From positions 60,991,245 through 61,055,244 of the forward strand of contig CM037861.1 in NCBI GenBank assembly GCA_021292105.1: 64,000 bases of DNA. Reading direction: 5' to 3'. The notes under the pieces were generated by a model. It ran no database searches. It had not been told where the DNA came from and worked only from the letters and a program-made list of their open reading frames with translations. This DNA comes from Anadara kagoshimensis. Lineage: Eukaryota > Mollusca > Bivalvia > Arcoida > Arcidae. The position numbers and the translations under genes are program-made. Below, piece after piece: positions 3,564 through 62,300 of this stretch (its first letter is position 1; every line of letters begins with the position of its first letter).

Positions 3564-3780
3564 ATAATTGTATTAAATTGTATTATGCTTATTATGTTAT
3601 AGTGCATTTTATCAAAAACTATGCAGACATGTCTAAATTCCCTATATCGCAAAAATAAATACACGCGAAATTAAATACATTTACAGTATATAATGTAGAC
3701 AGCCTAAGATAGGGATATGTAAAGGTGGAGTTTACAATTGAACCCATGAAGGCCTGAATATCAGTTACAATAACATGGTA

Positions 3781-3959
3781 CAGTCCAACCTGCCTTAAAG
3801 ACCACCTCTATATAAGGGTCACCTGCTTATAACAGCCAGTGAAATTGTATCCCAATTGTTCTTTATTCATATTATTTGAACCTGTATATAAAGGCCACCT
3901 GTCTATAAAAGTCACTTTTACTGATTCCCTTGGGTGCCCTTTACAGACAGGTTTGACTG
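3781..3959. mobile_element. Tc1/mariner-type MITE (family D), copy 1
   Basis: Ends cagtccaacctg and caggtttgactg are inverted and flanked by TA on both sides. The interior repeats ggccacct-type words. Two more copies with TA flanks are at 17144-17322 and 32137-32299. Confidence 0.85.
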
Positions 3960-4234
3960 TATTAATAGCTATTGGTGTATAATAAACTACAACTGTGCCA
4001 CAATATCACTGACCAACTATTTTGGAGTAGAATTTACTCATGGGGTATGTACCTACATAAAAATAGAGTATAAAGTAAAATGATGATAATTGCATAGGTG
4101 GCACGAAATACCAGGAGCTAGACCAGTTTCTTTCTAATTTGATCTCACCAATAGTCAGTGCTTACCTGATATTTTGATGAATGTTTTGTGAAACTTTGTG
4201 AGCTTATTGAATAATAGTCTGAGAGAGTTGATTG

Positions 4235-4440
4235 GATTATAGTTTTTATGCCCCAGTCAAGATTCTTTCACTCATATCAAGGCGGTCAGATTTTGAACTG
4301 TGGAAGAAACTGAGATCTAGAGTGCATGGAGAAAATCACTTTGTGAACTGACAAACTTTCTGACACTAGGATCTATCTGAGTGCAGATCAGTCACCTAAG
4401 TGATGAGAGGTGTTATGTTCTGTGAGCAAAACTGCTTCAG
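4235..4440 (-). mobile_element. SINE family C, degenerate copy
   Basis: Reverse-strand SINE body: tatgccccagtcaagattctt, ggtcag, ggaagaaactg, ctgacaaactttctgacact. The same words recur in the other family C copies. Confidence 0.65.
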
Positions 4441-4739
4441 ACCACTCAGACCCCCAAAGCCCCACAGATAAAAAGGCAGAGAGAGAGAGAGAGATTATAC
4501 CGGTAATCATAAAAATATATTGTGTAGAATACAACAAATTCAGTCAGACTTTTAACCTTAAATGCACTGAATTGATAACCATTAAGTCACAATGATATAA
4601 TTGTGACAATATTTGACCTAATTATTTTGTTGTCATAGTTTGTTTGTTGTTTTATTTGTTTAGATATTAATTTATAAGATAAAAGATTATTTATTTGATA
4701 GTGGTAGTAATATAGTACACACAATAGTGTGGATAAATG

Positions 4740-5075
4740 CTATGCCAGGACTTCTCTCAATAGTCAACAGTATGTGGGAGGTCTTGGGTTCGAACCCCAG
4801 CAATAGTCTGACATAGACTTGAAAATAAGTAGTGACTGTTCTTTTGCCAAGCACTCAGCATTTAGACGAAACTTTTAAAATTGATGCTCTGTGTCACAGC
4901 AGTAATTAATATGGCATGTTAGAGAATCCTCTACATATTGCCCTGAGCACATTGCAAAGGTAAAAATTTCTGCCACTTCACCTACAGCAGGTGTTTTCTT
5001 GATATAAGTGAGATATTATTGATTTGGATGTAAAAACCCCATTAAATCAATCAATCAATCAATCAATCAATCAGA
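4740..5075 (+). mobile_element. SINE family A with (AATC)n tail
   Basis: The tRNA-like head has the B box ggttcgaacccc near 4787. The body carries the family words agtgactgttcttttgccaa and caagcactcagcattt, then ttgatataagtgagatatt, and ends in seven AATC units. The A-box half is degenerate. Confidence 0.8.
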
Positions 5076-5134
5076 TGGTTACCATCTTATAAGCTTTCCA
5101 GACTGAGGTTTAATTGCTTATTTATTTATTCTCT

Positions 5135-5350
5135 TCATCTCTGCTTGCACCAACAAGAATCTTCCATTTGTCTCTGTCTTTTGCCAAGTGTTGTGCTTGT
5201 ATCCAGCTCCTGCAGCTGTGCTTGGATAGTTCTCCAGGTGGTACAAGATATACCAGGCTTCCTTTTTCCAGGTGCTGTCCAATTCAATCCTGTTTTTGGA
5301 ATTCCTTCCTCACTGGGCATTCTCATCACATGACCTAACCATCTAAAGCA
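5135..5350 (-). pseudogene. LINE reverse-transcriptase C-terminal fragment
   Basis: Read on the minus strand, the sequence gives CFRWLGHVMRMPSEEGIPKT and GKRKPGISCTTWR. These match the RWLGHVLRM...GKRKRGRPKTTWRR pattern found downstream of the reverse transcriptase in many animal LINEs (CR1/RTE/Jockey-like and related). It stops abruptly at about 5350, five bases before the 145-bp-core element begins, and continuing LINE sequence was not found on the far side. This is a 5'-truncated dead copy. Confidence 0.78.
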
Positions 5351-5355
5351 TTTTT

Positions 5356-8131
5356 AGCTCACCTGACCGAAGGTCATGTGAGCTTATGGCATAGAGCAGC
5401 GTGTGTATGTGCGTGCGTGTGTGCATGCGTGTGTGCGTGTGTGCGTGCGTGTGTGCGTCGTTAACACCTATTTTCGACTTCTCCTCTGAAACTACTGGAC
5501 AGTTTTTAATGAAACTTTGTCAGAAGTATATATGGGCCGGTGCAATTCAGATTTGTTCGCGGCGTTGCTATGGCTACCATAACTAGGTCAAGGTGACCTA
5601 GGGGTGCAAAAAACTTAAAAAATCTTCTTCTCCGAAAGTACTGATTGGAGAAAAAATCTGATGTGATATTTGGCTTCTTTAGGGTCTTAAGCCTATAGTT
5701 TGTTCATTTTGTGAAATTCGGATAAAAAATAGGTTACGCGTTTTTGCGTTTAATTTTGAAAAAATCGTAAAATAGCTTCAAATTGTTATAACTTGACTAT
5801 TTGACCAGATAATGACATGGGGTTTTCAGTTTTGACATTTTCTTGTTAGTATCTTCAAAATGAGGTCAAGGTCAATTGTGAAGGTCGTGACCTAATTTTT
5901 TTTACCTCTGATTATAATTATAATCTCGAAAACTATAAACTTTTTGTATAGGCATGTATATCAGAATGTTGTAGGTATCGATACAACGATCATTTTGATG
6001 TATAGAAAAAGGTCATGGGTTCAAAGGTCAAGGTCACAGATGCGAACCAATACTGAAATGGTTAATTATCTCGAAAACTATAAACATTTTGTATAGGCAT
6101 GTATATTAGAATGTTGTAGGTATTGATACAACGATCATTTTGATGTATAGAAAAAGGTCATGGGTTCAAAGGTCAAGGTCACAGATGTGAAACATTACTG
6201 AAATGGTTAATTATCTCGAAAACTATAAACATTTTGTATAGGCATGTATATTAGAATGTTGTAGGTATTGATACAACGATCATTTTGATGTATAGAAAAA
6301 GGTCATGGGTTCAAAGGTCAAGGTCACAGATGTGAAACATTACTGAAATGGTTAATTATCTCGAAAACTATAAACTTTTTGTATAAGCATGTATATTAGA
6401 ATGTTGTAGGTATTGATACAATGATCATTATGATGTATAGAGAAAGGTCATGGGTTCAAAGGTCAAGGTCACAGATGCGAATCAATACCGAAATGGTTAA
6501 TTATCTCGAAAACTATAAACTTTTTGTATAGGCATGTATATAAGAATGTTGTAGGTACCGATACAACGATCATTTTAATGTATAGAAAAAGGTCATGGGT
6601 TCAAAGGTCAAGGTCACAGATTCGAAACAATACTGAAATGGTTAGTTATCTTGAAATCTATAAACTTTTTGTATAGGCATGTATATTAGAATGTTGTAGG
6701 TATTGATACAACGATCATTTTGATGTATAGAAAATGGTCATGGGTTCAAAGGTCAAGGTCACAGATGCGAAACAATACCGAAATGGTTAATTATCTCGAA
6801 AACTATAAATTTTTTGTATAGGCATGTATATTAGAATGTTGTAGGTATTGATACAGCGATCATTTTTATGTATAGAAAAAGGTCTTGGGTTCAAGGGTCA
6901 AGGTCACAGATGTGAAACAATACCAAAATATTTAATTATCTTGAAAACTATAATCTTTTTGTATAGGCATGTATATTAGAATGTTGTAGGTATTGATACA
7001 ACGATTATTTTGATGTATAGAAAAAGGTCATTGGTTGAAAGGTCAAGGTCACAGATTTGAAACAATACTGAAATGGTTAATTATCTCGAAAACTATAAAC
7101 TTTTTGTATAGGCATGTATATTAGAATGTTGTAGGTATTGATACAACGATCATTTTGATGTATAGAAAAAGGACATGGGTTCAAAGGTCAAGGTCACAGA
7201 TGCGAAACAATACTGAGATGGTAAATTATCTCGAAAACTATAAACTTTTTGTATAGACATGTATATTAGAATGTTGTAGGTATTGATACAACGATCATTT
7301 TGATGTATAGAAAAAGGTCATTGGTTGAAAGGTCAAGGTCACAGATTTGAAACAATACTGAAATGGTTAATTATCTCGAAAACTATAAACTTTTTGTATA
7401 GGCATGTATATTAGAATGTTGTAGGTATTGATACAACGATCATTTTGATGAATAGAAAAAGGTCATGGGTTCAAAGGTCATGGCACAGATGTGAAACAAT
7501 ACCGAAATGGTTAATTATCTTGAAAACTATAAACTTTTTGTATAGGCTTGTATATTAGAATGTTGTAGGTATTGATACAATGATCATTTTTATGTATAGA
7601 AATAGGTCATGGGTTCAAAGGTCAAGGTCACAGATGCAAAACAATACCAAAATGGTTAATTATCTCGAAAACTATAAACTTTTTGTATAGGCATGTATAT
7701 TAGAATGTTGTAGGTATCGATACATCGATCATTTTGATGTATAGAAAAAGGTCATGGGTTCAAAGGTCAAGGTCACTTATTTGAAACAATACCGAAATGT
7801 TTTATTGTCTCGAAAACTATAAACTTTTTGTATAGGCATGTATATTAGAATGTTGTAGGTATCGATTCAATGATCATTTTGATGTATAGAAAAAGGTCAT
7901 GGGTTCAAAGGTCAAGGTCACAGATGTGAAACAATACTCAAATGGTTAATTATCTTGAAAACTATTAACTTTTTGTATAGGCATGTATATTAGAATGTTG
8001 TAGGTATTGATACAATTGTTATCATTATGTAAAGAAAAAAGTTATTGGGGTTTAGTATTTATGTTTTCTTTAAATCTATCAGCTAGCCATTAGTTATCAG
8101 GTGAGCGTATCAGGCCCATGGGCCTCTTGTT
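5356..8131. mobile_element. dispersed element with 145-bp core repeats, copy 2 (about 15 units)
   Basis: Same ends and left body as 1831-3563, including the left hairpin, the GTGC microsatellite and the right palindrome aggcccatgggcct. It has about 15 core units at 145-bp steps from 5925 to about 7953 instead of eight. Units differ at scattered bases; one near 7470 lacks a base. Core copy number is the main difference between the two elements. Confidence 0.87.
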
Positions 8132-8605
8132 TAATTAATTGTATGGTGATACTGGTACATTTACTGATCTTGAACAGATTTGCTTTAAATTGAGATTTTG
8201 ATGGGGTATATGATTAAATCCCAATCTTTCACTGTAGATGAAAGCTTTGCTGATTGGATGAATCAAACTTTGGGAGTTTGAGTTGTTTAACTTCTTGGCC
8301 ATAGCCAGTAAAATATAACTCCCACCTTTGGATGGGCACTGGATATAATGGATCAACCAAGTCCAGTGTTGTGGCTCAAATACTTTTTGATGGGCCTCAT
8401 CCATTCCACTTACATGTATTTTACATAATCAATTTTCTGTCTCAATAGATATATATGCTACATGGCTCATGATTTCTGTGTCAGAAATTGATATGTCATT
8501 CACGATCTGATGGCAATGTATACAGCAAGTCCATTTTAACATTAGGTTTGCTATGACAAATAAAGCATAGAATGGTGTGATGATATACAAATGCAACATA
8601 CTGTT
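8132..8605. other. no gene recognised
   Basis: A minus-strand open frame at 8135-8404 (89 codons) and one at 8429-8644 show no family motif, and no splice context supports them. Confidence 0.5.
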
Positions 8606-8828
8606 ATAGGTAAACAACATTGACCTGTCCTTTTGACCCATCATTATAAATATTCATATAGGAGGGTCCATCCAGTAAATGGGTAGTGTTAAGATACACA
8701 GTGCACAGGTTTACTCTATGAGGTGAGTATATCTCATGATGACCTGTGCTCCATATACATGGATATACATTGTTCATGATAAATATTTAAATGAAAAGTC
8801 AAGCGGACAGGTCAAAGTTGTTTGCATA
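8606..8828. mobile_element. MITE family A, copy 1
   Basis: The left end is taggtaaacaacattgacct and the right end the inverted aggtcaaagttgtttgc; about 223 bp. Ends carry TGACCT/AGGTCA words. Other copies: 22151, 28375, 29505, 36256, 50261, and the array at 32950-34110. Confidence 0.85.
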
Positions 8829-9309
8829 TTGTAAATGTTTCTTTTAGAAGAAAAAAAACAATGCAACCAGAAAATTTTGTAATGTTTAAGATATTTATGG
8901 TTAACAAAACTCTCCTTCTGTGAGATCAAAGATGTATACAAAAACAAATTAACTTTGTGTTAAAAAATGCATATAAAACTTAATGTCAAACTCAACTTCC
9001 TTTGAAAATAATCCACATGAAATGGTGTAAAGTAAAATGTGCAATTATAATTCAATTATTTCATGTTTGACTGCCACTCAAAGATGTTACTACTTAAACA
9101 ATAGGCCGTAAATCATGTGGCAGTAACGTAAATGCTATAACTTGTAAAGAATGTTTTCTTACACACGCTGTGTGGTTTATGTAAGGGTATGTAACATGTG
9201 GCATAACACAGATTATAAACGATAGGTAGGGGTTCTTTATTCGTTGATTTTTATAAGTTTTTATCCAGATGAATTCAATGATTTATTATCAGTTTTACGT
9301 CATTTTTAT

Positions 9310-9570
9310 TGTCAATATTTTTGAGATGTCACCAGCTAAACACATGTTTACAAATTTTGATCTTTGCAGTGTACTCAGGGCAATGTGCAGGGTTCTTTAG
9401 CATGCCACACCTCATAAAATACATTTCCTTTTTTGAGATCTCTTCCAAAGGATCCCCTGACTTTTATTTCAAAATGCAGAGTGTTTGGTGAAATAGCAGT
9501 CACTATCTATTTTTATGTCTGAGTCAGACCAAACCTCCCACATATAGAGCGAGACTTCTATCTCCAGATG
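9310..9570 (-). mobile_element. SINE family A, degenerate copy
   Basis: Minus-strand body words gagatgtcaccagct, gggcaatgtgcagggttctt, tagcatgcc and gagtgtttggtgaaa, ending near cctcccacatatagagcgag, the decayed tRNA-like head. Confidence 0.72.
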
Positions 9571-34930: not shown

Positions 34931-35287
34931 ATGATCCAGCTATTATGTAGTAGATACAGCTATTATGGTGATTAATTCATTCAATATTTTAGCTGAAATG
35001 CCAAATGAATCTGTGTAAGCTACCGGTATTTATTGAATCAAAGAACAATCTAGAAGTAATCTGATTCAAATCTGTAATGTTGGGGACAGGGTATTTTACT
35101 CTCAAGAGACTGTGCAAGTTTGAATTAGACAGGTGTTCAGTTTAGACAAGTAAATTTTGGATTAGTCAGGGGTTTGGTTTTTACAGGTACCCCTGTAAAA
35201 TGTAAGAAGCTAAATCTTGTACATAGCATGGTTACATATTTCAGTCAAGGACAAATGTACTTAATTTCATAATTTTTGTATTTACAG

Positions 35288-44300: not shown

Positions 44301-47300
44301 TTCCGCTCCTTTACCATCCATAACATATTAATGAAATGTTACACTAATGACTAGTAAAAGATTGTGCTCAACTTGATCCTGTTCCATTTATGGACCGTTT
44401 AATATTTTATTCCTGGTTACCTGCTACAACCATGGTAGGCATATCGCCTACCATCGAAAGTTGATAGGGCAGATACGTCGCTGGCTCAAGGCCATGCGAT
44501 CAACACAAAGTTATCCAGAATCACCAGTAGGACGTGCCTTTCGGAATGATTGGTTTTGTTCTAATAAATTCATATTACAAAATTAGTAGGGAATTTTGCT
44601 GTTACTGGAAACTCTAAAATGTTTTACAAATGGCATTGCAAACATTTCCTCAAACCAATTTGATATTTTGGTTCTAATTAAGACAGATTTGACTTTTTAT
44701 TGAAATAAAGTAATTTTATTATTTTCCTGTTTCAGACAAAAGCCTTATTTTCTGAGTTAATTCTTCCACTCGAACAGAAGCTTGAAAACGAATTTAGGAG
44801 ATATGCAGTGAGTATTGAATTATTATACAACGGACGCCTTGTTATACTAAGATGAATGTTTCTCTGATAGAAAAGTGATCTTAGATATGTTGGAAACTAC
44901 AAATCAATATCACAAGAATATATTTTTAACTAGATTTGATCTAGTCGTCATATTGTCTTCTTGGTTTTAAATATATAGATATACACAGACTTACCACTGA
45001 AATAACGAATATGTGTACAGTAAGGACCACCACAGAGATTCCCCATATTTGTTGCCTGTATTTAGCGAAATTCTGTCTTCCAAACGGTCCATTTTTTTTA
45101 TTATTATTATGTTTTTTTCATCAATTTTATTTTATCTGCATAGATAATAAATCAAAATTAATCAGTCTGAAAAATACATGTAGTATTATACTTAAGTTTT
45201 TTTTATGGAGTTTTATGTGCCAGTCAAAATTTTGTCATTTATTTTTAAAGTGGGTAGTTTTAAGGAATGGTGGAGGAAACCAGAGTGCTCAGAGAAAACC
45301 ACCAACCCTCAACAAGCAAACTGACAATTAAACTTTCTAATACTAGGATCTGTCCCAAGTGAGATTTAAATCTAGGTTATCACAGGCACTGTGATCTGTA
45401 AATGTACTCGCTTTCCACCACTCAGCCAACTAGACTCCTTTCCTTATAGTAGACCACTGTGGTAGCTCAGTTGGTAGAGTGCTTGCTACATAAGTGGGAG
45501 GTTCGAACCCTGACCAGGTCTGACCCAAGACTTAAAAGTACGTAGTGACTGTTCTTTCCCCAAGCACTCAGCATTATGAAATGAAAGTCATGGTTCTTTT
45601 GGATGGGAACTTAAAATAAACATGGTCCCATGTTACAGTAGGCTTGGCACATTAAAGAACCCTTCTGTATAATGCCATCAGAGCAATGCACAGACAAAAT
45701 TTCTGCACCTTTGCCTATAGCTGGTGACATCTTGATATAAGTGAAATATTCTTGACTGGGACGTTAAACACCATTACGCAACTCAATCCTTAAAATAAAT
45801 TATTCATTTGGACAACATGGGTAGACGACATGTCTAGGAATTGACGTCTGCAACAGTATGACCAATGATCAACAATTATTTATACATTCTATATTGATTT
45901 AAGATTCAATTTTGTGGCCTTGCATCAAGTTATGTCCCCTAAACACGCTAAAAGTTGTAATTTATCCTACTTTGGAACTAAGATCTGTATTAAAATGTTA
46001 TCTAGTTAAGATCCACTCCACAATTGTAATGACTCATGTAACAGTGGTCGGGGGGGGGGGGACAATATATATATTATGGTATGTCATTGTCTGTCCATCC
46101 GTATGTTAACATTTTTCTTGTCCGGTCCATATCTTTTAGCTTAATAAGGTTATCATGTATTATGGGAAGTTGGGTTGCCCCATATAAAATTTAGGTCAGA
46201 GTATTGAAGGTCAACCAAGGACATAATGTAGAAAATGCAAGAACTTCCTTATTTCTCATTTAATTCCTTTCAAATTTGATATGGATTTACAACAAGTAGC
46301 AGTGTTTCTCATCTAGACTGGGTTTTTGCTTTGAGGTCCTACTTTTTGCAGAATTGGAGAATGGTTCTTTGCATCTACGTTCTCATATCTTCTCATATCT
46401 TACTTTAATTGTGTTCAATTTTCTTTTGGGTACAACCTCTAGACATTAATGGGCATATATTGCCCCACTCAGCGGTGCTCTTGTTTTGTCTATGATATTA
46501 TGTAGGCATGTGTCACTGGCTTTAATTGCAGGTTGGTTAGTTGAATGTTGCTTAACGTCAGCATTTTTTCAGCTATTCGCGACAAGAACTATTTTATTAA
46601 TCTCTATGAATTAATCTATGAACAAGTTCATGTATGCATTTGAAGTGTGAGTGTTTTATGGTCTGCCTTGTACTTGTGTGCACTCAGGGCGACTTTAACG
46701 TGCTAGCTCACAAAGTGGGTATGCCGCAGACAGACATACCACTTCCCCAGTCACATTATAATGATACGAGGTGAGCCAGTAAAGGCCAACAGCAAGGAAA
46801 ATTCTTTTTCCTACATGTGGGCTGAGTGGGGCTCAAACTCACAATGGTGAGAGACCCTTGATTTGTAGACTGACATCTTATCCATTAGGCCAACCCAGCC
46901 TCGTGGTAATTGCGGGGTCTTATACTACATTTCAAATATTTTCTGGGGGAGCATGCCTGCATCCTCTGATTTGTTATTCCACATCAATGGAAAAATGTAA
47001 CCCCTTCTTTCAAAAATTCTTGTTTCAAATTTAACTTGTGTTTATTTTATTTATTTTTTAGGGTCAACATAAAAAATATACACATGGTCATAAAGCGTTA
47101 ATTAGTCCTTACATAAAATCCCATGATGCATTGAGAAAGTTCCGAAAGAAAACGAAAAACAAAATGGTGTATGATGAACATAAGGAAGCACAGGTATAAT
47201 TGTTACATCCCTAGTACATAAATTTAGTCTTCCAGAGCACTGGGCCTCACTTTCTTGGTAGAAAATCAGGTGTTTAACTAAATTTGCCAGTTTTCAAAGT

Positions 47301-50300
47301 TTTTACTTTGTATTTTGGATTGTGATTTGAACACGGTCCTGTATGTTTGTGTTTGGTTTGCATTTGTAATGTTTTATTGAATTAAACTCTGTTGAGACAA
47401 TATGTAATCAATATATGCTTATAATTACCATTGCTAAAGTGACATCACTATTAATTTCTTGCTTTTGCCTCTATATGTGACATCTTTGATTCCAGCAATT
47501 GCAAATGAATGTTGAACATGCCAGTGTTTTAGAATAATTTCAGAATTCAATAACTAAAATAAGATTTTCAAAAAATACCAAATATAAATACAACCATTGA
47601 ACTGACGACGAGAAATGGTGTTTATATGGCTATAACTAACTTCCATTGCTTTGCAAAGCAAATTAATAATGTGCAGATATGGACTGTTCAAATATAATAT
47701 ATATGTATATGTATGTATTCTTTAACATTTCAATATTTTCAGTATGTGAAGATATTACACAAATGTCAGGAGAGGTTAGATGACTACAGGTATCAAGGAC
47801 TGAAACTGGTAAGTTATGCCAAATGACTACAGGTATCAAGGACTGAAACTGGTAAGTTAGGCCAAATGACTACAGGTACCAAGGACTGAAACTGGTAAGT
47901 TAGGCCAAATGACTACAGGTATCAAGGACTGAAACTGGTAAGTTAGGCCAAATGACTACAGGTATCAAGGACTGAAACTGGTAAGTTAGGCCAAATGACT
48001 ACAGGTATCAAGGACTGAAACTGGTAAGTTAGGCCAAATGACTACAGGTATCAAGGACTGAAACTGGTAAGTAAGGCCAAATGACTACAGGTATCAAGGA
48101 CTGAAACTGGTAAGTTAGGCCAAATGACTACAGGTATCAAGGACTGAAACTGGTAAGTTAGGCCAAATGACTACAGGTATCAAGGACTGAAACTGGTAAG
48201 TAAGGCCAAATGACTAGAGGTATCAAGGACTGAAACTGGTAAGTTAGGCCAAATGACTACAGGTATCAAGGACTGAAACTGGTAAGTTAGGCCAAATGAC
48301 TACAGGTATCAAGGACTGAAACTGGTAAGTAAGGCCAAATGACTACAGGTATCAAGGACTGAAACTGGTAAGTTAGGCCAAATGACTACAGGTATCAAGG
48401 ACTGAAACTGGTAAGATAGACCAAATGACTACAGGTATCAAGGACTGAAACTGGTAAGTTAGGCCAAATGACTACAGGTATCAAGGACTGAAACTGGTAA
48501 GTTAGGCTAAATGACTACAAGTATCAAGAACAAAAATATGTGGTTCTACTCAGTCTTTGCAGAAGAGATTCTAACTTTATCAGTACAAATTTACGTTACA
48601 GGCATGTCATGAATTTAACACTAAGCTAAAAAATTACAAATGTAGTGCCAAACTGGCAGCTCATCTCCACCAGTTAACTCTTGACTCCAGCAGATGCTAT
48701 CTAACTCTCCACTAACTATCCATATCTTGACCACTTGGCAGCTGAGCTTCTACTTCTTTTTGTTAGCTCAATGTTAAACTTTTGACTGGTCTGTACTGTA
48801 TCTTGACCTCATTAAAAGTTTGATTAGGTAACTAATATTTAGAGTGTGATATGATAACTGGATCCACAGATTATATTTTAAATGCTGAACGGGGGTTAAA
48901 AAAATTTCCCAGTTCGGAGGTCCAGGGCCTATTTAAACAACATTTAACACTTTTAATATTTAACTGTGAAAGTCTGATAGACCTGCACTTTTTTACTAGA
49001 ACAATACTGCTTTTTGTATACAGTAACATAACTGCACATAAATCTTTCAGTGCTAATATTTGACTTTCAAAACATTATGTGGGATCTACCAAAAATAAAG
49101 GCAAAAAGTCTTGGACCTTCCGTCACAAAACACAATATTAACCCCTGTCAGCCTAAGTCTCAATTTTTTACATATAAAGGTAAAACCAGGAAGTTTTGAT
49201 AGATAGTGTTAGATAGTGATATTTAAAAATTGAATTTTAATTACCTTAAAGTTTTCATGTCAATGCATATTTATATTAAACCCTTTGATTTCTAACTTGA
49301 TTTGATTCAAGTTTTAAAAATGTAATTTAGAACTTTTTAGAAATATTTTTTTTTATTTAACTTCAGAGTTATGTAATGAGATTTTATTGTGCTGATTTTT
49401 ACTCATGGAATATTAATTTGCATTTTTTCCTTTAAATATATGTGCCTTTTTGATTTTGAGGATATATAAATTGATATAATTGTTAATTGTTGAACAAGTT
49501 GGAAATTTAAATGGTGACATACACCCTGAAAACTAATTTTTTTTTCGGGGAGGGGGGGGGGGGTTAGGAATCACCCTGTTGGCCCATCCGTCCAGTTTGT
49601 CTACCTTGTATAAAGTTTGCATCATTTCTTCCTTCTTCCTTATCTGCAGATGCATTTTGATCAAACTTGGCACAAATATAAACCAACATGAGATGATATA
49701 TCATATATAAAATATAGTTACAAAGGTTAAGGGTTAAGGTCACAAGGTCAAATTTTTGGGATGGGGGTAGAGTAAATGCCTCCCTAGAGACTGCTCAGTT
49801 TTATGCAGACTTCACAGAAAATCAAATGTCAAAATGAAAGCCAGAATTCACAAGTGATTATTTCTACATTTTATTAACAATAAAGTCTACATAAAAAGAC
49901 TACAATGGGGCACATCTTGTCCCCATTTGACTGTCCAAGTTGTTTAATATTCATAAACATAAAACAAATATATCAATTTGTATAGCCTCAGAATCAAACA
50001 AATCAACAGGTCACAATTACTTTAAGTATACTCAAAAAAAAAGAAATGCAGATTAATAATCCATGAGTAAAATCTTGTCACATTAATTTAAAACCCCATT
50101 ACATTGCAACAATTAGAAAATTTGTTCTGAAGGCAAAAAGTTATTGCATGTAACTTGTTAGTACATGTCCCTTTTTTATTTGTAGACTTTAAAAGTGCAT
50201 ATATGCTCTATATAAATTATAAAATTATAAATATCCATTAATAGCATGAAAAATTCTAGTCTAGGCAGACATTAATGACCTGTCTGCTTGACCTATCATA

Positions 50301-53300
50301 AGGAATATTTATATAGAAGGATCCTCCCAATGCATAGGAAGTGGAATTTGAAGTAAGTGCATTAACAATACATTATTTTCATGATGTAGTAAAATAAGCA
50401 CCTCTATTCCCTATACATAAAGGTACTGGTCCTTAATAAATATTCAAATTAAAGGTCAAGCAGACAGGTCATTGTTGTTAGCCTACCCAGTGTACATGCT
50501 GATTGATCCGGTTACCTTTAATACAACTGCTGACATTTAAAAAGCTGTATACCTTAAATAATGAGTGATGTAAACATGTACACGACTTAATACCATCTGT
50601 GACACAGTACATATACTGTTATGTATTTCAAAGTAAAGCACTTAGTTTGATTGAATGTGGTTTTAGGTTCTATTCAAGAATATTTTGCTTATATTGAGAT
50701 GTCACCAGCTACAGGTGAAGTGGCAGAAGTTTTTACCTTTACAGTACACTTAGGACAATGTGCAGGGCGGGTTGTTTAACATACCACACCTGACATAGCA
50801 CAGGGCATTGGTTTTTAAGGTCGCTTCTGAAGGACCATTTGACTTTCATTTCTAAATGGCAAGTGCTTGACAAAAGAATAGTCACTAACTTTTTCAAGTC
50901 TTAGTCAGACATGGCATGGGTTTGAACCTATGACCTACCACATATGACGTGAACACTACCAATTGAGGTACAACAATCGAAAAATAAGGCACTTACAGGC
51001 CACTCGTAAAATAAGGGATTTGTCCCTCTGTTAATACTACATTGTATAGTCATTTTACTAAACACCATTAAAACATTAAATATAAGGTTCAAAGTAGGGA
51101 GTTCTATAATTATTGGGCCCCATATATATATTTTCTTGCATTCCAAATAAAAACAAAATCCATAAAAAGAGCAGTGAAAGATAATTTCATCTTGCATTCT
51201 CTGTGCAAGATATGACGCCTCAGCATAAGTGAAATATTCTTAGGATGTGAAACCCCATTCAATCAATCAGTCAATTCTATGCACCTACATGTTTTCCTGC
51301 AAAGCTTTATTAATAAAATAAAAGGTGTATTGATAGCTTGATAACATGTTTAAATTAATTTTTAAAGGAATTTATGTATTTTGTGGTGAAATTAATAAAA
51401 TCAATCACATTTTGCAGTGCCTGATAGGGAATTTTTTTACTATTTGGTCCAGAAACTTCATTTTATCAGTTGCTGACTGAAGGCCAGGTATTCTTTAGGT
51501 ACTCCAAATTTCTCCACCATCACAAAATTGACTGCCTCAATATAAGTGAGAAAAAAATCTTGACTGAGATGTAAACTCCGGTATTCCACTCAACTCCAAT
51601 TAATCCAGAGATTGTTAAATCAAGATGACATTTTGAACTTGGTTTGGTAAGAGAATGTCATCTTAATTTAACAATCTTTGGATTAATTGGAGTTGAGTGG
51701 AGTAATTTAGTTTACACCCCAGTCAAGATTTTTTTCACTTATATTTATGTTTCACTTATTTATATTTCCAGAACATAATTCACTCTCTTTTATGCTTTAC
51801 ATATTTCAGGCCTTACTAGAAGAGAGAAAATGTCACTGTTTTGTTCTAGATCGACTGAGTTCCATGGCAAATATGTATGCATTACATCACAAACAGGTAA
51901 TTATCTGCAATCGGGTCCAACACGTTGTACCCATTCACATTTATGTGTAACTATTATTTTATATTAGGTTACTGTAATTATGTTCCCGAAACGAAATGGG
52001 GACATATATTATGTTTACTGCATTTTTTTCGCCAACAATTTGTCTGCCACTTTTTTCGAAAACTGAAAACCTGATCTTTATGAATAGGAAAACTCTTTAA
52101 GTGGAATAGATGTGATGTTGGCTTTTTGTATTTTGATCATTAACATGGCTGGTGATGTCTAAGTTGGAGTTAGTTTCAGTTATAACTTATTATAACTGAT
52201 TATATGATGATAGTCTGGGAATATTCTCAATTTTTGTAATCGAGAAAAGATGAAAGAATTTCTAAACAAATATTATAATCGCAAATCTATTTCCAAGCAA
52301 AAAGAAAAAAAAAACAGGCAGGTGTTTTTGGACAACTTGACTGGTCTTCTATCTGTGATGTCACAATCAACTGTTTGGGAAGTAGCTTAGGTCATTGACT
52401 GCTTATAGAAGATAATTAAATGTCCCAAGTCAACCATCTTTAAAATGGATAAATGGCAAGTCCAGTATTTTTCATCTTTTTATGTTTGATTCATTAAAAC
52501 ACATTTTATTTGGTTTTAGGCTTCAGATATTTTAAATAATAAAATAGGACATTGGAAACAGTTATCATCAAAACCACATATATTGCCTTCATCTGCAGAT
52601 AAACTTATAACACCACAAGCACAAAGGGTAGGTAACCATGCAGTAGTTCCAATATCGCAGGTTTGTGCATAAATTTACACGTTAAACAAATATATGAGTC
52701 TAAAATATCTTACAGGGGTCACCTAATGCAGCAGAATTGTAAACATGGTCATTTTCATGTGGCGAAAATTTTGCTATTTTTCGTGAATTTAAAAAACCAT
52801 AAAAATTACTCTTTCTAAAAATTATGGCAAGTCATTGCTTCATGTGCTTTGTACCTCAAGCATGGACAAAATTGGGGGAAAAAACCCTTGTGTAAAATAT
52901 TAACAATTGGATTTCACAAAAAAAATCTTCAATCCATCCGAAACTCTTGTCCACCCAAAATTCTTTAAAACTATGAAGCATTATTTCACAAAACTTGTTG
53001 CAAAGCATCAACTTTGATAGAAGATGTGCATATCTTTAATCGAGTGAGTTTGCTCAATTTTCTGGGAGTTTTGGCTCTTTGACTGAAAAGAAGACCCTGC
53101 TGGCTGGGGATCCTAATTCACTGAATTTGCTTGTTTATTTTTATAAGTGATATTTAGATGATTTTATAGAATTTTTGAATTTCCTTTTTAGGAAGAAATG
53201 TATGAACATATGAATGGTGTGGGAATGTATAGGGATAATGGATATCTACGTGATGACACCAGGTCATTAGGTAGTCCGTACCGACGTCCCGCTAGTGTAC

Positions 53301-56300
53301 CCGGGGTCTATAGACATCCAGAGGGAGATTTTTATAGTCCAGAAATGTATAGTAAGTTGTATGCCTCATAGTCAAATTATCAGCCTCAAAGTCAAGTAGT
53401 CTTTAATGAATGATTTATACAACTTACATCAGTAATGATAAATCAAATTGTAAAATAACTAAAATAACTAATCATTAATAAGATTGGATGAATTGGATTA
53501 CTGGTGCTTTACATTCCAGTCGAGTTTCTTACGTTAATATTGATGCTGTCAGTTTAATCATGGTGGAGGAAACTGGAGTGCCCTGAGAAAAACCCTCAAC
53601 TTTTGACAAGTGAACTTTTCTTACAGTAGGACCTGCCAAAGTTGGATTTGAACATAGACAGAAAGAGGCACTGTGATTCTAATGTGTATGCTTTGTACCA
53701 CAGAGGTCCTTTCTGTTAATAAGAAGAAACCCAAGTTAAGGCATATAAATAAGTAAATCTGAAAGACATAAAAATGAAATTCTCTACAAATACTGAAAAT
53801 GAGGCTAGTTGCTATATAGAGAGAGTATGTGTATGGAAAGTCCTCCAATTGTACTCTACACTAAATTTGAATTTAGATTGAGAAAGTCTCAAAAATCAAG
53901 CTGTTTAGAAATTTTTTGTGAAAATGAATTTTTCAAAACTTTTACTTGTAAATTAATTAATAGGTGGGTGGGGGGTTACAAAAGGAAGTCGTACCTTCAT
54001 CACTGTTGTGTTACTAATTTTATTCTTATATTTAATTATAGGTAGAACATTACCCTCATCACGTGGTATAAGTGTACCCCCTCCCACACCCCCAGGGGTA
54101 CTACAAGTACGAGGCGTGTATTCTCATGTAGGAGAAGGTGAAAGTAAACTCAGTTTTGCCGAAGGAGATGTTATCAATTTGATTGGTGAGAAGTCAGATG
54201 GATGGCATTACGGTCAAAATACTCGCAGTGGGAAGTAAGTTGTTTAATGAAATTAACACAAATTTCACATGAAATTCATTTGAAGCAAAATTCATGTTAA
54301 ATTAACCTAAAAATTTGTTTCAAATTACATAAAATTCATGTCCAATGTATGTTAGCCCAAGAGCTAGTGGGGTTTGAAATATGTGTCAATGGCCAAAAGC
54401 TTTGAAGGTTGTTTCTGATAGAAAAATGTCTGTAGTTTTCGAATTTGGGCGTCTTGTGAATGAACTCGTTTCCGATTTTTTTTCAGACGCGAGTTTTTAC
54501 ACTAGAATCGCATTTTTCAGCCGGTTTTTCGGTAATTGATAATTCTGCATTATGGACGCGATATGGCCTTAAAATGTCTTATTACTGATGCGGTTATCAA
54601 GAATTATGATCATTGTTGACATTTAAGTTAAAAACTTCTTGATACATTTCAGATTTTTTTTAAAATAACTATTTTAGGAAAAAAATAGACCAAAAATTTT
54701 GCGTTTTTAATATTTTGCCCTCTTTTATGTCTTATAAAAAAATAATAAAAGCATTTAAGTGAAATGTTTTACCATATTGTCACAGCCTAATGTGTTTTGC
54801 ATTCAATAAAAGTAGCTGCATATCATTTGGTAGGAAATTGCGGCACCCACAGTGGAAAAACTTTCCCCTACCCCAAAAATTGCAAATTTCTCAAAAAATC
54901 GATCTTTACTACAAATTTTGCTATTAGTTGCCATACTGATTGTTATACCGTGTAAGCTTTAATACTTGGGTGACAACATTGAAGACCTCTAACTAAAAAC
55001 TTCTTGTTAAGCATTCAATCTCAATTTTGTGGCCAATTTTAAACAACCGAGTTTTGCGTTTTTACTTAATCTTTATTCGTTAAAGTCTTGTAGCGCATTC
55101 AAAAAAAGCCTGATTATCAATATACTATTTTATTTAGAATCCCTGATGTTTGTGCTTTATTGTGCAAGTATAATGTATAACACAATCGTCACACAAACCC
55201 TTTCACCACAATTTATTCTTCCCCCTACCCCATATGCAATAAATAAGCGAGTTCGCGAGATATTGATTTTACACTTGTGCGTTCTCAGGCAGTGAGATTT
55301 TAAACACGGTAGAGTGTTATAACGTAAATTTGTACTTGAAACATATAGTAAATTACGCTGTTAGCTTGTTTATTCAATGCTTTGATTTTTTGTATTATTA
55401 AGCAATGATAGTGCCACGCCCTTTTGTATGACTCGGCAGATGGCGCTGCGCAAAGCGTTTGTGTTACGTTTTCTGTCATTGCAAATCACACGTGGTTGCA
55501 ATTATAGATACTTTCATATGGTTGTTGTTTATGATAAGTAAGAAAAAACTATTCACCCCTTTTTTCTATTGTTTTGTTACCGTTTATATTTCGTGTGAAC
55601 AAGTTGATTTTATTTAATATTTGTTTTTAAAAAGAATCCGTGTTCACAATAGAATCAATGAAGTTTTGACGCAGATAAGTAATCTGTTTGTTAATTCTAT
55701 TTGATTCCGTGACTGAATTAAAATCACTGTAAATAATATTTTGCGATTTGTTTGTGATAACTCATTGTCATTTCAATTAGAAGTGTTGCAAAATGGCCAG
55801 CACACGGCTGGATACATCTAAGGGGAAACAGATATTACAGGGCGATAGCACAGATGAAACAAATCTTGTTTGTTGCCTTCATGTCGATAAACGTTTCCAA
55901 GATATAGAAATTAAACCTTTTGATGAAACAACATGGAGTAAAGTGGCAAAAGTTGCTGAATATCGTCTTTCGAAAACAAAATCCCACAAATATAAACAAA
56001 TTTGTCAAGATCTTCCTCAAAACTTTGATCCTAAAACCAATGGTTATCACAGAATGTGTTACAAGAACTTCACTGCTGTCTCAAAAAAAGAACTAGAGTC
56101 TTTTTCCACTGTAGAAGTAGAAGAAGTTTCTTACACTTTAAGATCCCACACTGAACATTTATCGGACGAAACTTCCTCCTCCGGTATTTTTCTTCCCGTA
56201 TGTTTGTTTTGTGGCCTCCTGACGAAGGGTAAGAAAAGGGAACAGTTAGGCAATTGTGAAAGTTTGGAAGCGGGAGAAAAATAAAAAATGCTGCAATGGT

Positions 56301-59300
56301 TCTGGGTGATACAGATATGATTGCCAGAGTTTGTGATATAGATTTTGTTGCTAAAGAGGTTAAATATCACCATAGCTGCCGAAAACATTACTTAAATCTT
56401 TCTGAGAGGTGTATACCCGGGTCTGCTAAGACAGAATATGGCAACATTAGGCTAGGACACGAAAAAGCATTTAAATGGTTGACCGAATACATAAATAAAA
56501 ACGTTATAGCACAAGGTCAAGCTGTAACAATTGCCTCCTTGTATGAATATTACACTACAATGCTGATGGACATTGGTCTTGATTGCTCCTCATATACCAT
56601 CCAGACTTTAGAAGTAAAACTTCTAAATCACTTCAAAGATGATATTTGCATGAGTAAAATAGGTAAACGACAAGGCAAAATATTATATCCAAGCTTTCTA
56701 GATACAGATCAGATTATAGGTTTCCATAATACGTTTTTATTAAATTCCAAAGTCACTGAAGCTGCATACCAGTTGCGAAATACAATATTAGAAATGTCAA
56801 AGACATGTCCCCAATTACAGAACCCATTGACTGTAAATGAAATACAGAAAGGCCAAGCTAACCCCCCAGACATACTTATGCAGTTTTTTAAAACTCTATA
56901 TACAGGGTCTTCAACAAAAGAACCTTCTGAAAGAATGAATAGATGCATCAGTTCAGCAGCAGATGATGCTTTGTTTGCTGTAACCAATGGCGAAATAAAG
57001 CCATCAAAACATTTATGTCTTGGACTGGGTTTTAAAAGTATGACTGGTAGTAAAAATTATTGAAGTACTAAATCATTTAGGGCACTCAATAAGTTACCAT
57101 GTTGCGGAGACACTTGAAACTGAACTTGCAATGACAATATCAGACAGGAATCAGCTAACTCCTGATGGATTACTGAAAATTCCAAACTTGTCAACCGGAA
57201 CGGCTTGGGATAATTATGATGAAAACACCGAGACTTTGTCTGGAAGCGGAACTTTGCACGACACAGTTGGAATATGTTACCAGAACACTCCCGACGAACA
57301 ACATTCAATGGGGGACTCTCTAGGAATTCCACAAGTATCCACTACACAAACAAAGTCATTGAAACGTAAACGCTCTTTAGATATTGAGGACCCTATTTTA
57401 GAATCTTACAGAAAGCGTCCAAAAATAACAAAATTTCAATATCCCGTAAAAGCAATTTCGGACCCCTCTAATTTAAATGAGACCAGAAAAAGGGATTTAA
57501 CATGGGTGATTTGTCACCATTTATTTTCTAATATACCCATGTGGTCAGGATGGAATTCTCTAATCACAGTAGATCATCTACCAGAGCAAGTGATAGGCTA
57601 TATGGACAATATAAGTTTGCCACCGACCCGATTAGATGTGGTGTCGGAAACATTACGTCGATCGCAGATTGTGGCACGGGAATGTTCTGATAACACAGCA
57701 ATTGTCCACTATGATCTTGCCATAGCTAAACCAGCGATGCAGATACAATCGGAAGAATCACCAAAGTACGACAATATTTTCATATGTTTTGGTCCTTTCC
57801 ATATAATGTTGGCATATTTTGGCGCTCTTGGTCACTTAATTGAGGGCTCTGGCGGACCATATGTGCTAACCGAGACCAAAGTTCTGGCAGAAGGGTCTCT
57901 AAATGGGTTCATAAAAGGGAAGCATTATAACAGATGTCAGAGAATGCATACTATATTATCTCTTTCTTTCCGTATTCTCCATTTTCGGTCTTTTCTGGAA
58001 GAGCATGGTCAGATATCTGAATCTTTATACGAGCAGTTAGAACAATTCATTACAAATACTTCTTCAGAAGAAATGCAAAACGTTCTAGAGCAAGAAAATT
58101 TAAAATCTATTTTTGATATGTATGAAGCCTTTTCCAATGACACAAGAACTGGAAACCATGGATCAACAGCACAGTATTGGTTTATGTATATTGAATTAGT
58201 TGAACTTCTGTTACTTTTCAGTAGATCTTGTCGAACTAACGATCTACCTTTATTTACTTACTGCTTAGGAAAAATGTGTCCAGTATTTTTTGCAGCTAAT
58301 AGACCAAACTATGCAAGATGGATGACACGCTATCACTTAAATTTACTTAACATTGATATAAGTCATCCACAAGCAAGAGCAATGCTTGAGAATGGTGGTT
58401 TGTCTATAAGACGCTCGAATAAATCATTTTCCAGAATTCCAGTGGACATGACACTTGAGCAGACAATCAATGCTGATGCTGCATCTCGTCTAACTGGCAT
58501 TTCTGCATTCAGCCAGTCATATACGGCCAGGCGAAGATGGATGATTACACGAAGTGTCCGCAGTGCTATCGTTGGTGCTCTTCTCTCAAAAACTGGAATC
58601 CGGAAAAAGGGGGATGTGAATCAAGAGCTCAAGCCGTCGCGAATTCAGAGAGATAATAAAGATGTAAGTAGTTTGATCGACTGTATTAAAGCAACTAAGA
58701 ATCCGTTTGATACAGAGATAAGAAATGAGGATCTCCTGTGCATATCAACTGGTAACAGAGTCAAAGATGATGTGAAAAATGAGATACTTAGTTGTGTAAA
58801 ATATGGCGAGCAATCTTTTCACGACTTTAGAAATGGCTGTTTTGCAGATCCCTCTAGATTTGAAAAACCTATTACAAGAAACAAATTGCGCACTTTTGCA
58901 TCTTTGGCACTTAAGGTTCGGGTTGAGGTGAAAGCAAAGAAAATCATACAGCTACAGTGTTCACGTGATCTATTTGGTAGGCTTTTGTTTTTGGCAACGA
59001 CAACAGATATAAACTTGCAGAAAGTTTTTGAATATCCTCTCACTCCCGTGCCGCCAGCTCTTGCACAAATTGACGGGAATATGAATAAAACCGACAAATC
59101 AATACTTATGAAAATGTTAGAGAGCAAGGCTCATTCTGATCCTCCAGCTGCAAATCAAATTGATGCTTATGTCGTTGATGCCATGTTCCTTATACAGTTG
59201 CTGTCAAACCTACCAGATACTTTTGAAGGTGTAGCCAAAACCATTCTCAAGCTATTATGTAAACTGGCAAAAGAAATACACTTTGTTTGTGACACATATG

Positions 59301-62300
59301 TCCATCCATCCATCAAAGATATTGAAAGAGATATGCGAGGAGAGAGCAGTGGACCAGATATTGTAGTAATGGGCCCAAAACAAAAGCGACCTCATGATTT
59401 CCGTTCAGCTTTGAAATCTGCTAATTTCAAGAGGTCATTACTATCGTTTTTGCTACAAGAATGGAAGAATGATAACTATGCTGACATTCTTGCAGGCCAT
59501 ACATTATATTATGCAACAGAGGACCACTGCCATCAATTCTATTGCGAAAATGATGCAACAGTAGTGTGCAGTGAAGTGTCCAATCTTGCCTGTACCCACG
59601 AGGAGGCAGATACCAGGATCACCTTACATGTGCAATACATTGCCTCAAGGTCCGATTCTCCTAACGTAGTGGTTAGAGCAAATGACACGGATGTAATGGT
59701 TATTTTATTGTATCATTGTCACCAAATACATGCAAACATATGGATGGATTCAGGCACTGACGGCACCAATACTAGGCGATTTATTGATCTAACAAAACTG
59801 TCCAATGAAATTGGGATCGAAATGTGCCAAGTTCTTCCAGCTATCCATGCTTTCACTGGATGTGATTATACTGCAGCATTTCTTAGAAAAGGTAAAATTA
59901 GGCCTTATAATATCGTTGAAAAAAGTGCAACTTTCAGAAGCGTTTTCTCAAATATTGGAACAAATCAAAGAGTTAATGAAAGAGATATGAAGGTAATGGA
60001 ATCTTTTGTCTGTGAAATGTATGGCAAAAAAAACATTAAAACAGTAAATGAGGCACGATTTGCCATTTTCAGAGAGAAATACGCTCCAACAAATCAAACT
60101 GACCCATTAGAAAAGCTCAAAGGAGCCGATCCGAGTTCACTACCTCCTTGTAAAAGTGTTCTTGTTCAGAAAATCCTCCGAACAGAATATGTTGCATATT
60201 TTTGGAAACATGCCAATTGCAGTTGTCCTACATTAAATACTCCACAAGAAAATGGATGGAAAAAAGAAAATAACAAGTATGCGATTCACTGGTTTGAAGG
60301 TGAACAGATTCCGAAAGATATAAGACTGAAGATGGACAGTACAACTTTTACAGAGGATGACATGGGAGAAGATGAGGATGTACGTGAATCCGACAGTAGT
60401 GATAGTGAAGACACTGATGATGAATGAAATTATAATTCTGAATGAATACGAGTTATTTTGAACCAGCCTGTCTAAGAGCACTAACACAGTATATCCCGTG
60501 AATTCGCATATCGTTAGCATATTGGGGTAGGGGAAGAATAAATCGTGGGTAATGGGTTAATGTGACGATTTTGTTACACATTATACTTGCACAATAAAGC
60601 ACACACATCAGGGATTCTAAATAAAATAGTATATTGATAATCAGGCTTTTTTTGAATGCGCTACAAGACTTTAACGAATAAAGATTAAGTAAAAACGCAA
60701 AACTCGGTTGTTTAAAATTGGCCACAAAATTGAGATTGAATGCTTAACAAGAAGTTTTTAGTTAGAGGTCTTCAATGTTGTCACCCAAGTATTAAAGCTT
60801 ACACGGTATAACAATCAGTATGGCAACTAATAGCAAAATTTGTAGTAAAGATCGATTTTTTGAGAAATTTGCAATTTTTGGGGTAGGGGAAAGTTTTTCC
60901 ACTGTGGGTGCCGCAATTTCCTACCAAATGATATGCAGCTACTTTTATTGAATGCAAAACACATTAGGCTGTGACAATATGGTAAAACATTTCACTTAAA
61001 TGCTTTTATTATTTTTTTATAAGACATAAAAGAGGGCAAAATATTAAAAACGCAAAATTTTTGGTCTATTTTTTTCCTAAAATAGTTATTTTAAAAAAAA
61101 TCTGAAATGTATCAAGAAGTTTTTAACTTAAATGTCAACAATGATCATAATTCTTGATAACCGCATCAGTAATAAGACATTTTAAGGCCATATCGCGTCC
61201 ATAATGCAGAATTATCAAATTACCGAAAAACCGGCTGAAAAATGCGATTCTAGTGTAAAAACTCGCGTCTGAAAAAAAATCGGAAACGAGTTCATTCACA
61301 AGACGCCCAAATTCGAAAACTACAGACATTTTTCTATCAGAAACAACCTTCAAAGCTTTTGGCCATTGACACATATTTCAAACCCCACTAGCTCTTGGGC
61401 TATGTGAAAATTTCACTACAAGATTCATCTGAAAATCAAAATTTGGCTGTGCAGTAGTTTATCATGATTTTGTCGTTGAAAAGTAATAATTCTTTTAATC
61501 ATTGATTAGCATATTAAATTTAAAAACATGAATATAAATTAACATATACTACAGATAATTAGTCTTAACAAATTTCATTTAGCAAAAATTTTAATGTGTA
61601 TTTTTTGCACAATTGACTAAAGTGCATTTGCAATATGCTTGCACTGGGGAGTGGGTCAGTTAATATTCGGTAAACAGGGTGGGCAAGAAAACATCTGACA
61701 TAAAGATATATGGCAATCTTGTTTCTCTTTATGATTATACACAATACATATGCACTATTAGAAAAAAAGATCACTATTTACTCTGCCATAATACCTCAAA
61801 TAGAGTGTAAGTATTAAAATCAAAACTATGATATGAATGAGGTATATTGGCTTAGTTCAAAGAAGAATAACTCTTATAGTTTCATGCTAATTAGAAATCT
61901 GGAATTGATATAAAATGTTTACGTATATTTTGTTCTTGTTTAGATATGGATGGTTTCCACTTTCTTTTACTGAACCAATATTAATAGGAGGTCCTCCTAG
62001 AGAACCTGCTCCAAGGTAAGTATACATTGCCATGTTGATTACCTGAAAGTAAGTAGTGAAGTGGAATTATGGTGATTAACTCCCAACTCATAAATATTTC
62101 ACTTATATCAAGAAGGTCAGCTCAGGGATGGTTAAGGAAAGCAGAGTGCCTGGTTTAAACAACTTAATATGATAATGGCAAGCGAGTTCATAAACTTGAT
62201 TACACTTACTCTGCTCAAATAAGCTTTAAACCTAGGCAGTTATAATTAGAGGTTCTGTGATCTTTTAAAGACAACTCAGTCCACTCAGTCATGAGAATAC

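What the first reader, a model, noticed from the sequence alone, without database searches (positions are those of the whole stretch)
47743..48528. Tandem amplification of a coding exon's 3' end together with its splice donor (17 donors in a row)
The last 27-28 coding bases of the exon at 47743 plus its GTAAGT are repeated every 43 bases, giving one genuine and 16 extra donor copies, each with an acceptor-like actacag. Using any later donor brings in a TGA after six codons, and 43 is not a multiple of three, so copy choice would change or end the protein. The array could act as a donor decoy, a U1 sink or a source of 19-base micro-exons. Near identity of the units suggests recent growth and probable length polymorphism.
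Basis: partly seen in the sequence, partly recalled or inferred. Interest (0 to 1): 0.8.

Follow-up and report, generated by a model that had tools for sequence, protein, structure and literature searches.

The report
Minisatellite repeating an exon's splice donor
The end of one protein-coding exon and the splice signal that follows it are repeated seventeen times in a row, a rare but already known kind of DNA repeat that most likely just lengthens the intron while the first copy of the signal does the work.

Summary
The exon at 47743-47808 is real: it encodes part of the I-BAR (IMD) domain of a BAIAP2/IRSp53-like gene. Its last 29 coding bases plus the first 14 intron bases form a 43-bp unit repeated 17.4 times (47780-48528), giving one genuine and 16 extra GTAAG donors. 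Any later donor adds five codons and then TGA.

The closest known case is the human ABCA7 intron-18 VNTR, whose 25-bp units also begin on a true donor. There, retention of one unit is rare, transcripts with early stops rise when translation is blocked, and longer arrays go with more skipping of the next exon. Published minigenes with two identical donors under exon definition used only the upstream one. I therefore read this array as a mostly neutral, donor-spanning minisatellite whose first donor is normally used. The micro-exon idea is weak; decoy and U1-sink ideas have no support here.

The case is not unique in this 1.1-Gb genome. Of 16 donor-bearing arrays fetched (of 19 listed), 5 sit on exons with protein homology (NOA1, SNX7, ARMC7, peptidyl-tRNA hydrolase, an LDLR class B repeat). 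An apparent genome-wide excess of donor arrays vanished with a second control word. No RNA or population data were available.

The parts
44736..44807 (+). Exon B (72 nt), TKALFSELILPLEQKLENEFRRYA, I-BAR domain
   Evidence: AG|..|GTGAGT borders; IMD match of the joined exons
47062..47193 (+). Exon C (132 nt), I-BAR domain
   Evidence: TTTTTTAG|..|GTATAA borders, open frame; IMD match of the joined exons
47743..47808 (+). Exon D (66 nt), YVKILHKCQERLDDYRYQGLKL, I-BAR domain; its last 29 bases are the start of repeat unit 1
   Evidence: IMD E 8.5e-9 over profile 78-191 with D, 2.6e-4 over 78-134 without D
47780..48528 (+). 43-bp tandem array, 17.4 copies, each full unit = 29 exon-derived + 14 intron-derived bases with a GTAAG donor
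47809..47814 (+). Genuine splice donor CTG|GTAAGT (donor 1), inferred from frame and domain continuity, not from transcripts
   Evidence: Phase-0 join to exon E gives a continuous IMD match
47852..48501 (+). Sixteen further donors, 47852 to 48497, every 43 bases; 48411 is GTAAGA; 48067, 48196 and 48325 are GTAAGTA and pair better with U1 than donor 1 in a model
48511..48540 (+). Degenerate last half-unit without donor
   Evidence: Read directly
51810..51896 (+). Exon E (87 nt, in frame), ALLEERKCHCFVLDRLSSMANMYALHHKQ; the exon that would be skipped by analogy with ABCA7
   Evidence: ATTTCAG|..|GTAATT borders; IMD match
54044..54229 (+). SH3-encoding stretch of the same gene (limits of the protein match, not exon borders)
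   Evidence: tblastn limits; Pfam SH3_9 6.4e-8; PDB BAIAP2 SH3 8.7e-8

Best explanation
A tandem duplication that spanned the 3' border of exon D (29 exon + 14 intron bases) grew into a 17-unit minisatellite inside the intron of a BAIAP2/IRSp53-like gene. Each new unit carries another donor, but the exon is recognised across itself (exon definition; introns of 549 and 4001 nt), so the donor nearest the exon's own acceptor, the first, is normally used and the rest is spliced out. Occasional use of donor 2 would add 43 nt with an early TGA, to be removed by nonsense-mediated decay. The array is mostly neutral; its plausible side effect, by analogy with ABCA7, is some mis-splicing of exon D or length-dependent skipping of exon E. 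Shown: the array, the exon, the frame, the stop, the recurrence at other exons of this genome. Inferred: donor choice, decay, length effects.
For: Array and donors. Exon D is coding: IMD 8.5e-9 with it, 2.6e-4 without; exons D+E align to IRSp53 structures (E 0.004). Fourteen of 17 donors, donor 1 among them, are identical from -29 to +6, so hardly anything local marks donor 1. Five of 16 other donor arrays fetched from this genome start at or across the donor of an exon with protein homology: NOA1, SNX7, ARMC7, peptidyl-tRNA hydrolase (E 0.0016, under Pfam's cut-off) and an LDLR class B repeat. In these five and the focal one, read-on meets a stop within 1-21 codons. Literature: five minigenes with two identical CAG/guaagu donors under exon definition used the upstream one exclusively (PMC9225289, section 4 part 1); in ABCA7, retention of one VNTR unit was 2 +/- 1% and transcripts with early stops rose with cycloheximide (PMC5954066, section 21); the upstream donor stays paired with polymerase-tethered U1 (PMC8316553, abstract).
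Against: Donors 7, 10 and 13 pair better with U1 in a model (-10.7 against -9.1 kcal/mol), and in human data the stronger donor is dominant in 86% of pairs, while without matching for strength about 60% of events prefer the downstream donor; the difference here lies at +7, outside the usual scoring window (recalled). Variable positions are fewer in the exon-derived part (2 of 29) than in the intron-derived part (5 of 14, p 0.028; 4 of 14, p 0.077, if the one private to unit 1 is dropped), a weak hint of constraint or conversion. In ABCA7 exon 19 skipping reached 45 +/- 10% in one brain region and rose with array length, so 'neutral' may be too strong. No RNA data.
Confidence: 0.7

Rival explanations
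1. Length-dependent splicing dial: array length sets the share of transcripts that are mis-spliced (donor 2, or skipping of the 87-nt in-frame exon E), and so sets the dose of the I-BAR protein.
For: ABCA7: exon 19 skipping rises and expression falls with VNTR length (PMC5954066). Exon E is 87 nt, phase 0 on both sides, so skipping keeps the frame. Units 7, 10 and 13 indicate block growth.
Against: No transcript or population data. ABCA7 alleles run from 0.3 to about 10 kb, the array here is 0.75 kb; the ABCA7 unit is C-rich with other motifs. In ABCA7 single-unit retention did not change with length.
Confidence: 0.17
2. Source of 19-base micro-exons: spliceosomes use the in-array ACTACAG|GT acceptors with the next donor.
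For: 16 of 17 donor-bearing units carry ACTACAG 19 bases before the donor. An acceptor two units on would leave an intron of 67 bases.
Against: Poor pyrimidine tracts at all 17 sites (0.31-0.50) against 0.63-0.81 at four acceptors of the gene. The nearest acceptor would leave an intron of 24 bases, too short (recalled limit). 19 bases shift the frame.
Confidence: 0.04
3. Donor decoy or U1 sink: extra donors titrate U1 or suppress premature polyadenylation in the 4-kb intron.
For: Sixteen further U1 sites downstream of the exon; U1 is known to suppress intronic polyadenylation (seen only in abstracts of a search listing). In 5 of 9 arrays the donor word is kept better than the median word, and never worse.
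Against: The donor word was the best-kept in none of nine arrays (ranks 4 to 24), and arrays picked by that word favour it; one gene's transcripts could hardly titrate an abundant snRNA (inference).
Confidence: 0.04
4. Assembly artefact: the repeat number is wrong or the array is spurious.
For: Raw reads were not available; array lengths are often misassembled (recalled).
Against: Units carry private variants and one variant is spaced every three units; the assembly is in 36 contigs; similar arrays sit on five other exons with homology.
Confidence: 0.05

Closest known systems
ABCA7 intron-18 VNTR of humans (PMC5954066; passages and sections 21-22 read)
   Same: A minisatellite that starts on a true exon's donor and repeats it; unit length not a multiple of three; use of the second donor gives a frameshift and early stop.
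   Different: 25-bp C-rich unit whose first two bases are the donor's GT, so no exon bases; measured length polymorphism, splicing change and disease association; here 29 exon bases are repeated and nothing is measured.
TERT intron-6 VNTR6-1 (PMC11830802; passages read)
   Same: Intronic minisatellite of similar unit size (38 bp) that alters splicing of exons further on.
   Different: Lies about 3.5 kb upstream of exon 7 and is explained by G-quadruplexes; the passages that I saw do not describe it as repeating an exon's donor.
Two-donor exon-definition minigenes (PMC9225289; section 4 part 1 read)
   Same: Identical donors compete behind one exon.
   Different: Artificial, two donors in cultured cells; here 17 in nature.
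Intron gain by tandem duplication (ATP2A1, fission yeast, potato RdRp; PMC4974935, abstract and introduction read)
   Same: Tandem duplication across or near a splice border; the unit contains AG|GT.
   Different: Those create a new intron; here the array is part of a 4.0-kb intron whose two exons join one conserved domain, so an intron seems to have been lengthened.

Membership tests
Donor-spanning intronic VNTR (ABCA7 type) | The array starts at or across a true exon's splice donor | tested here: met
   Array from 47780 overlaps the end of exon D at 47808; exon supported by IMD match
Donor-spanning intronic VNTR (ABCA7 type) | Every unit repeats a donor sequence | tested here: met
   17 of 17 full units have GTAAG, 16 of 17 GTAAGT
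Donor-spanning intronic VNTR (ABCA7 type) | Later donors give a frameshift or early stop | tested here: met
   TGA as the sixth codon after donor 1
Donor-spanning intronic VNTR (ABCA7 type) | Copy number varies between individuals | not testable with these tools
   One assembly only
Donor-spanning intronic VNTR (ABCA7 type) | First donor dominant among donors, rare single-unit retention, length-dependent skipping of the next exon | not testable with these tools
   No transcript data
BAIAP2/IRSp53-like gene | I-BAR (IMD) domain | tested here: met
   PF08397 8.5e-9, 35.6 bits, over the curated cut-off of 26.2
BAIAP2/IRSp53-like gene | SH3 domain downstream, closest to BAIAP2 | tested here: met
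   SH3_9 6.4e-8; best PDB match BAIAP2 SH3 8.7e-8
Intron gain by tandem duplication | The intron itself arose from the duplicated exonic segment | tested here: inconclusive
   The array is 0.75 kb of a 4.0-kb intron between two exons of one domain, which speaks against it; whether relatives lack the intron was not testable
Regulatory donor array under selection | Donor better conserved than the rest of the unit | tested here: inconclusive
   Donor 7-mer ranks 14 of 43 here and 4 to 24 in eight other arrays; at the median in 4 of 9, above in 5, below in 0; picking arrays by this word favours it

The most novel reading that the evidence does not exclude
This genome carries a standing class of genes, likely dozens or more (inference from five found in a partial list), in which the true donor has been amplified into a long row of identical or near-identical donors (17 here; 69 at NOA1), and row length tunes splicing of the host exon or the next one, here in-frame skipping of the 87-nt I-BAR exon E. 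If so, it is a natural, length-variable test of how a spliceosome picks one of many identical donors.
Probability: 0.17. Interest if true: 0.75.

Novelty: new member of a known kind. Interest (0 to 1): 0.45.

Why it matters
The experiment on identical competing donors that I read used two-site constructs. Here are natural rows of 17 (and 69) donors on conserved genes, with almost nothing but position to tell them apart, so junction reads would directly test whether the donor nearest the upstream acceptor always wins. The ABCA7 precedent shows that such arrays can go with altered splicing and gene dose, and that they are poorly handled by short reads.

Tried and rejected
Donor hotspot: rows of donor words exceeded their reversed-word controls (GGTAAGT x3: 8969 against 3208 places; CAGGTAAGT x3: 843 against 199; CTGGTAAGT x3: 459 against 109; places overlap, so large arrays count many times), more than single words did (CAGGTAAGT 13923 against 10032; CTGGTAAGT 8974 against 8091). 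By locus, in the same 17% of the genome, 12 donor loci (9 unit families) stood against 3 reversed-control loci. I rejected the hotspot because an acceptor word showed the same ratio (227 against 55; singles 27300 against 21864) and a shuffled word of the same letters and its reverse gave 553 and 707 places, and 8 loci for the shuffled word in that span. Word-to-word scatter is as large as the supposed effect.

True donors over-represented among CTGGTAAGT arrays: 4 of 9 fetched have homology support, against 0.10-0.14 expected (p 0.008 and 0.025). The expectation rests and on a recalled human-like donor profile and intron number, so this is left open.

RNA structure: z 0.89 for one unit, -1.26 for exon plus one unit, -2.10 for three units; too weak to use. 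Open frames upstream of first donors are longer than at isolated GTRAG sites (15 arrays plus the focal one, median 46.5 against 29 codons, 123 null sites, p 0.0007; L076 left out because its array runs on upstream). I counted only exons with homology, so L063, L064, L065, L066, L068, L069, L070, L071, L072, L075 and L076 are not counted (L069 fn3 E 0.13, L066 no Pfam family; L070, L071 and L075 no Pfam family; L070 and L075 no PDB match; L064, L068, L072 and L076 were not searched as proteins). Exon D alone matched nothing. A whole-locus read of L067 gave no family. A kinase-family search meant to supply a random exon sample gave places but no letters, so I have no rate of donor arrays per exon. 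Literature: of ten searches, one search found ABCA7 and TERT; no bivalve or mollusc paper on donor arrays appeared in the listings.

Full report
What is there. The array runs from 47780 to 48528, period 43, 17.4 copies, 97% matches and no indels. Seventeen GTAAG donors stand at 47809 and then every 43 bases to 48497; one is GTAAGA (48411), and the unit at 48213 has ACTAGAG instead of ACTACAG. A last half-unit (from about 48511) is degenerate and has no donor. The unit is 29 bases of exon end plus 14 bases of intron start. The search of the whole assembly (1.115 Gb, 36 contigs, window on contig C5) with the array reported one place. No tool names the organism; the gene suggests an animal, and the repeat content reminds me of bivalve genomes (recalled, a guess).

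The gene. Exon B (44736-44807), exon C (47062-47193), exon D (47743-47808) and exon E (51810-51896) have AG..GT borders and open frames of whole codons. Joined, they match Pfam IMD over profile 78-191 at 8.5e-9; without D the match falls to 2.6e-4 over 78-134. With a further upstream piece (near 35287) the match is 9.7e-14 over 57-191. D and E together align to IRSp53/BAIAP2 structures (E 0.004), and an SH3 stretch follows whose best PDB match is BAIAP2. So exon D is a conserved coding exon, the array copies come from it, and the genuine donor is 47809. The introns before and after D are 549 and 4001 nt long by these borders.

Consequences of the extra donors. From the exon's frame, read-on gives VSYAK and then TGA, so every later donor ends the protein at the same place. 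Donors 1, 2, 4-10, 12-14, 16 and 17 (14 of 17) are identical from -29 to +6; modelled pairing with U1 is -9.1 kcal/mol for 13 donors including donor 1, -10.7 for donors 7, 10 and 13, and -8.0 for donor 15. Nothing local therefore favours donor 1; position must. All 17 in-array acceptor-like sites have poor pyrimidine tracts (0.31-0.50) against 0.63-0.81 for four acceptors of the gene, which speaks against micro-exons.

Growth. The variant GTAAGTA occurs in units 7, 10 and 13 only, three units apart, so a three-unit block has probably been copied. Over the 17 units 2 of 29 exon-derived and 5 of 14 intron-derived positions vary (p 0.028); one of the five is private to unit 1, and without it p is 0.077. 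In nine arrays the donor word ranks 14th of 43 here and 4th to 24th elsewhere among the words of the unit; it is at the median in four, above it in five and below it in none. As the arrays were picked by this word, that is no clear sign of selection.

Is it alone? Three searches for rows of donors list, in their first 100 places each, 4, 3 and 12 array loci; the rest of the genome was not listed. I fetched 16 of these 19; the three left out repeat units of fetched ones. Five of 16 begin at or across the donor of an exon with protein homology: NOA1 (E 5.8e-15), SNX7 (1.3e-10; PX domain 1.3e-6), ARMC7 (4.8e-4; 13 identical residues in a row), peptidyl-tRNA hydrolase (E 0.0016, 18.7 bits against a cut-off of 27) and an LDLR class B repeat (2.7e-4, 21.8 bits against 21). 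The commonest donor spacings are 44, 25, 47, 25 and about 29, not multiples of three, though NOA1 also has some of 42 and the LDLR case one of 30. In all five and the focal case read-on meets a stop 1 to 21 codons past the exon. Of the other 11, nine have at best candidate exons, L064 has none, and L076 was not tested. So donor rows on true exons recur in this genome. About 15% of the window is tandem array (18 arrays of period 20 or more and three or more copies; only the focal one has a row of GTAAGT), so arrays must often hit exon borders by chance (inference).

Is there more of it than chance? I first thought so, because donor rows exceeded reversed-word controls 2.8- to 4.2-fold, and by locus 12 against 3 in the same 17% of the genome. 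But an acceptor word did the same, and a shuffled word and its reverse gave 553 and 707 places against the donor's 459, with 8 loci for the shuffled word in that span. I withdraw the excess. Neutral seeding of arrays, tolerated at donors because the first donor still works, is enough.

How it most likely works. Five minigenes with two identical CAG/guaagu donors behind one exon, built for exon definition with 365-nt introns, used the upstream donor exclusively; among human events with near-equal donors and long introns the upstream one is also favoured, although over all events about 60% prefer the downstream donor and the stronger one is dominant in 86% (PMC9225289, section 4 part 1). The upstream donor stays paired with polymerase-tethered U1 while the intron is made (PMC8316553, abstract). 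ABCA7 is the natural precedent: a 25-bp VNTR beginning on the exon 18 donor, with retention of one unit at 2 +/- 1%, and with skipping of exon 19 rising with VNTR length and reaching 45 +/- 10% in one brain region (PMC5954066). I expect something like it here: first donor dominant, a little donor 2 removed by decay, and possibly some skipping of exon E, which is 87 nt and in frame. For this gene all of this is inference; no RNA data were available.

Verdict. A real, striking, well-read observation; in kind it is a new member of the ABCA7 type of donor-spanning minisatellite, with exon bases included in the unit, and one of several in this genome.

Noticed in passing
window 55781-60427 (+): Three overlapping long frames (167, 267 and 1127 aa) lie between the SH3 stretch and a likely next SH3 exon near 61943 (weak tblastn match; frame read), so probably inside an intron; the 1127-aa frame has a sub-threshold DUF6589 match. 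Looks like an intronless, frame-broken mobile element; described only.
   Followed up: partly
window 2372-3482 and 5923-8015; L063 2387-4251: The same 145-bp tandem unit occurs in two arrays of the window and in a distant locus: a dispersed satellite family.
   Followed up: no
G000 C2:37368777-37476882: A cluster of many protein kinase matches of equal score, several about 1.85 kb apart, some with stops inside.
   Followed up: no
L066 (C1:14503500-14513400) 3437-9513: A 43-bp array with 142 GGTAAGT copies over 6.1 kb, starting at the end of a long open frame (222 aa) without a Pfam or NCBIfam match.
   Followed up: partly
L067 (C1:15780000-15789900): NOA1 exon end and donor repeated with a 44-bp period, 69 donor copies; the longest donor row found on an exon with homology.
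   Followed up: partly
G000 C2:25713785 / 25989839, C3:53970027 / 54073283 and C4:434871 / 611951: Pairs of arrays with the same unit about 0.1-0.3 Mb apart, the C3 pair on opposite strands: local duplication, once with inversion.
   Followed up: no
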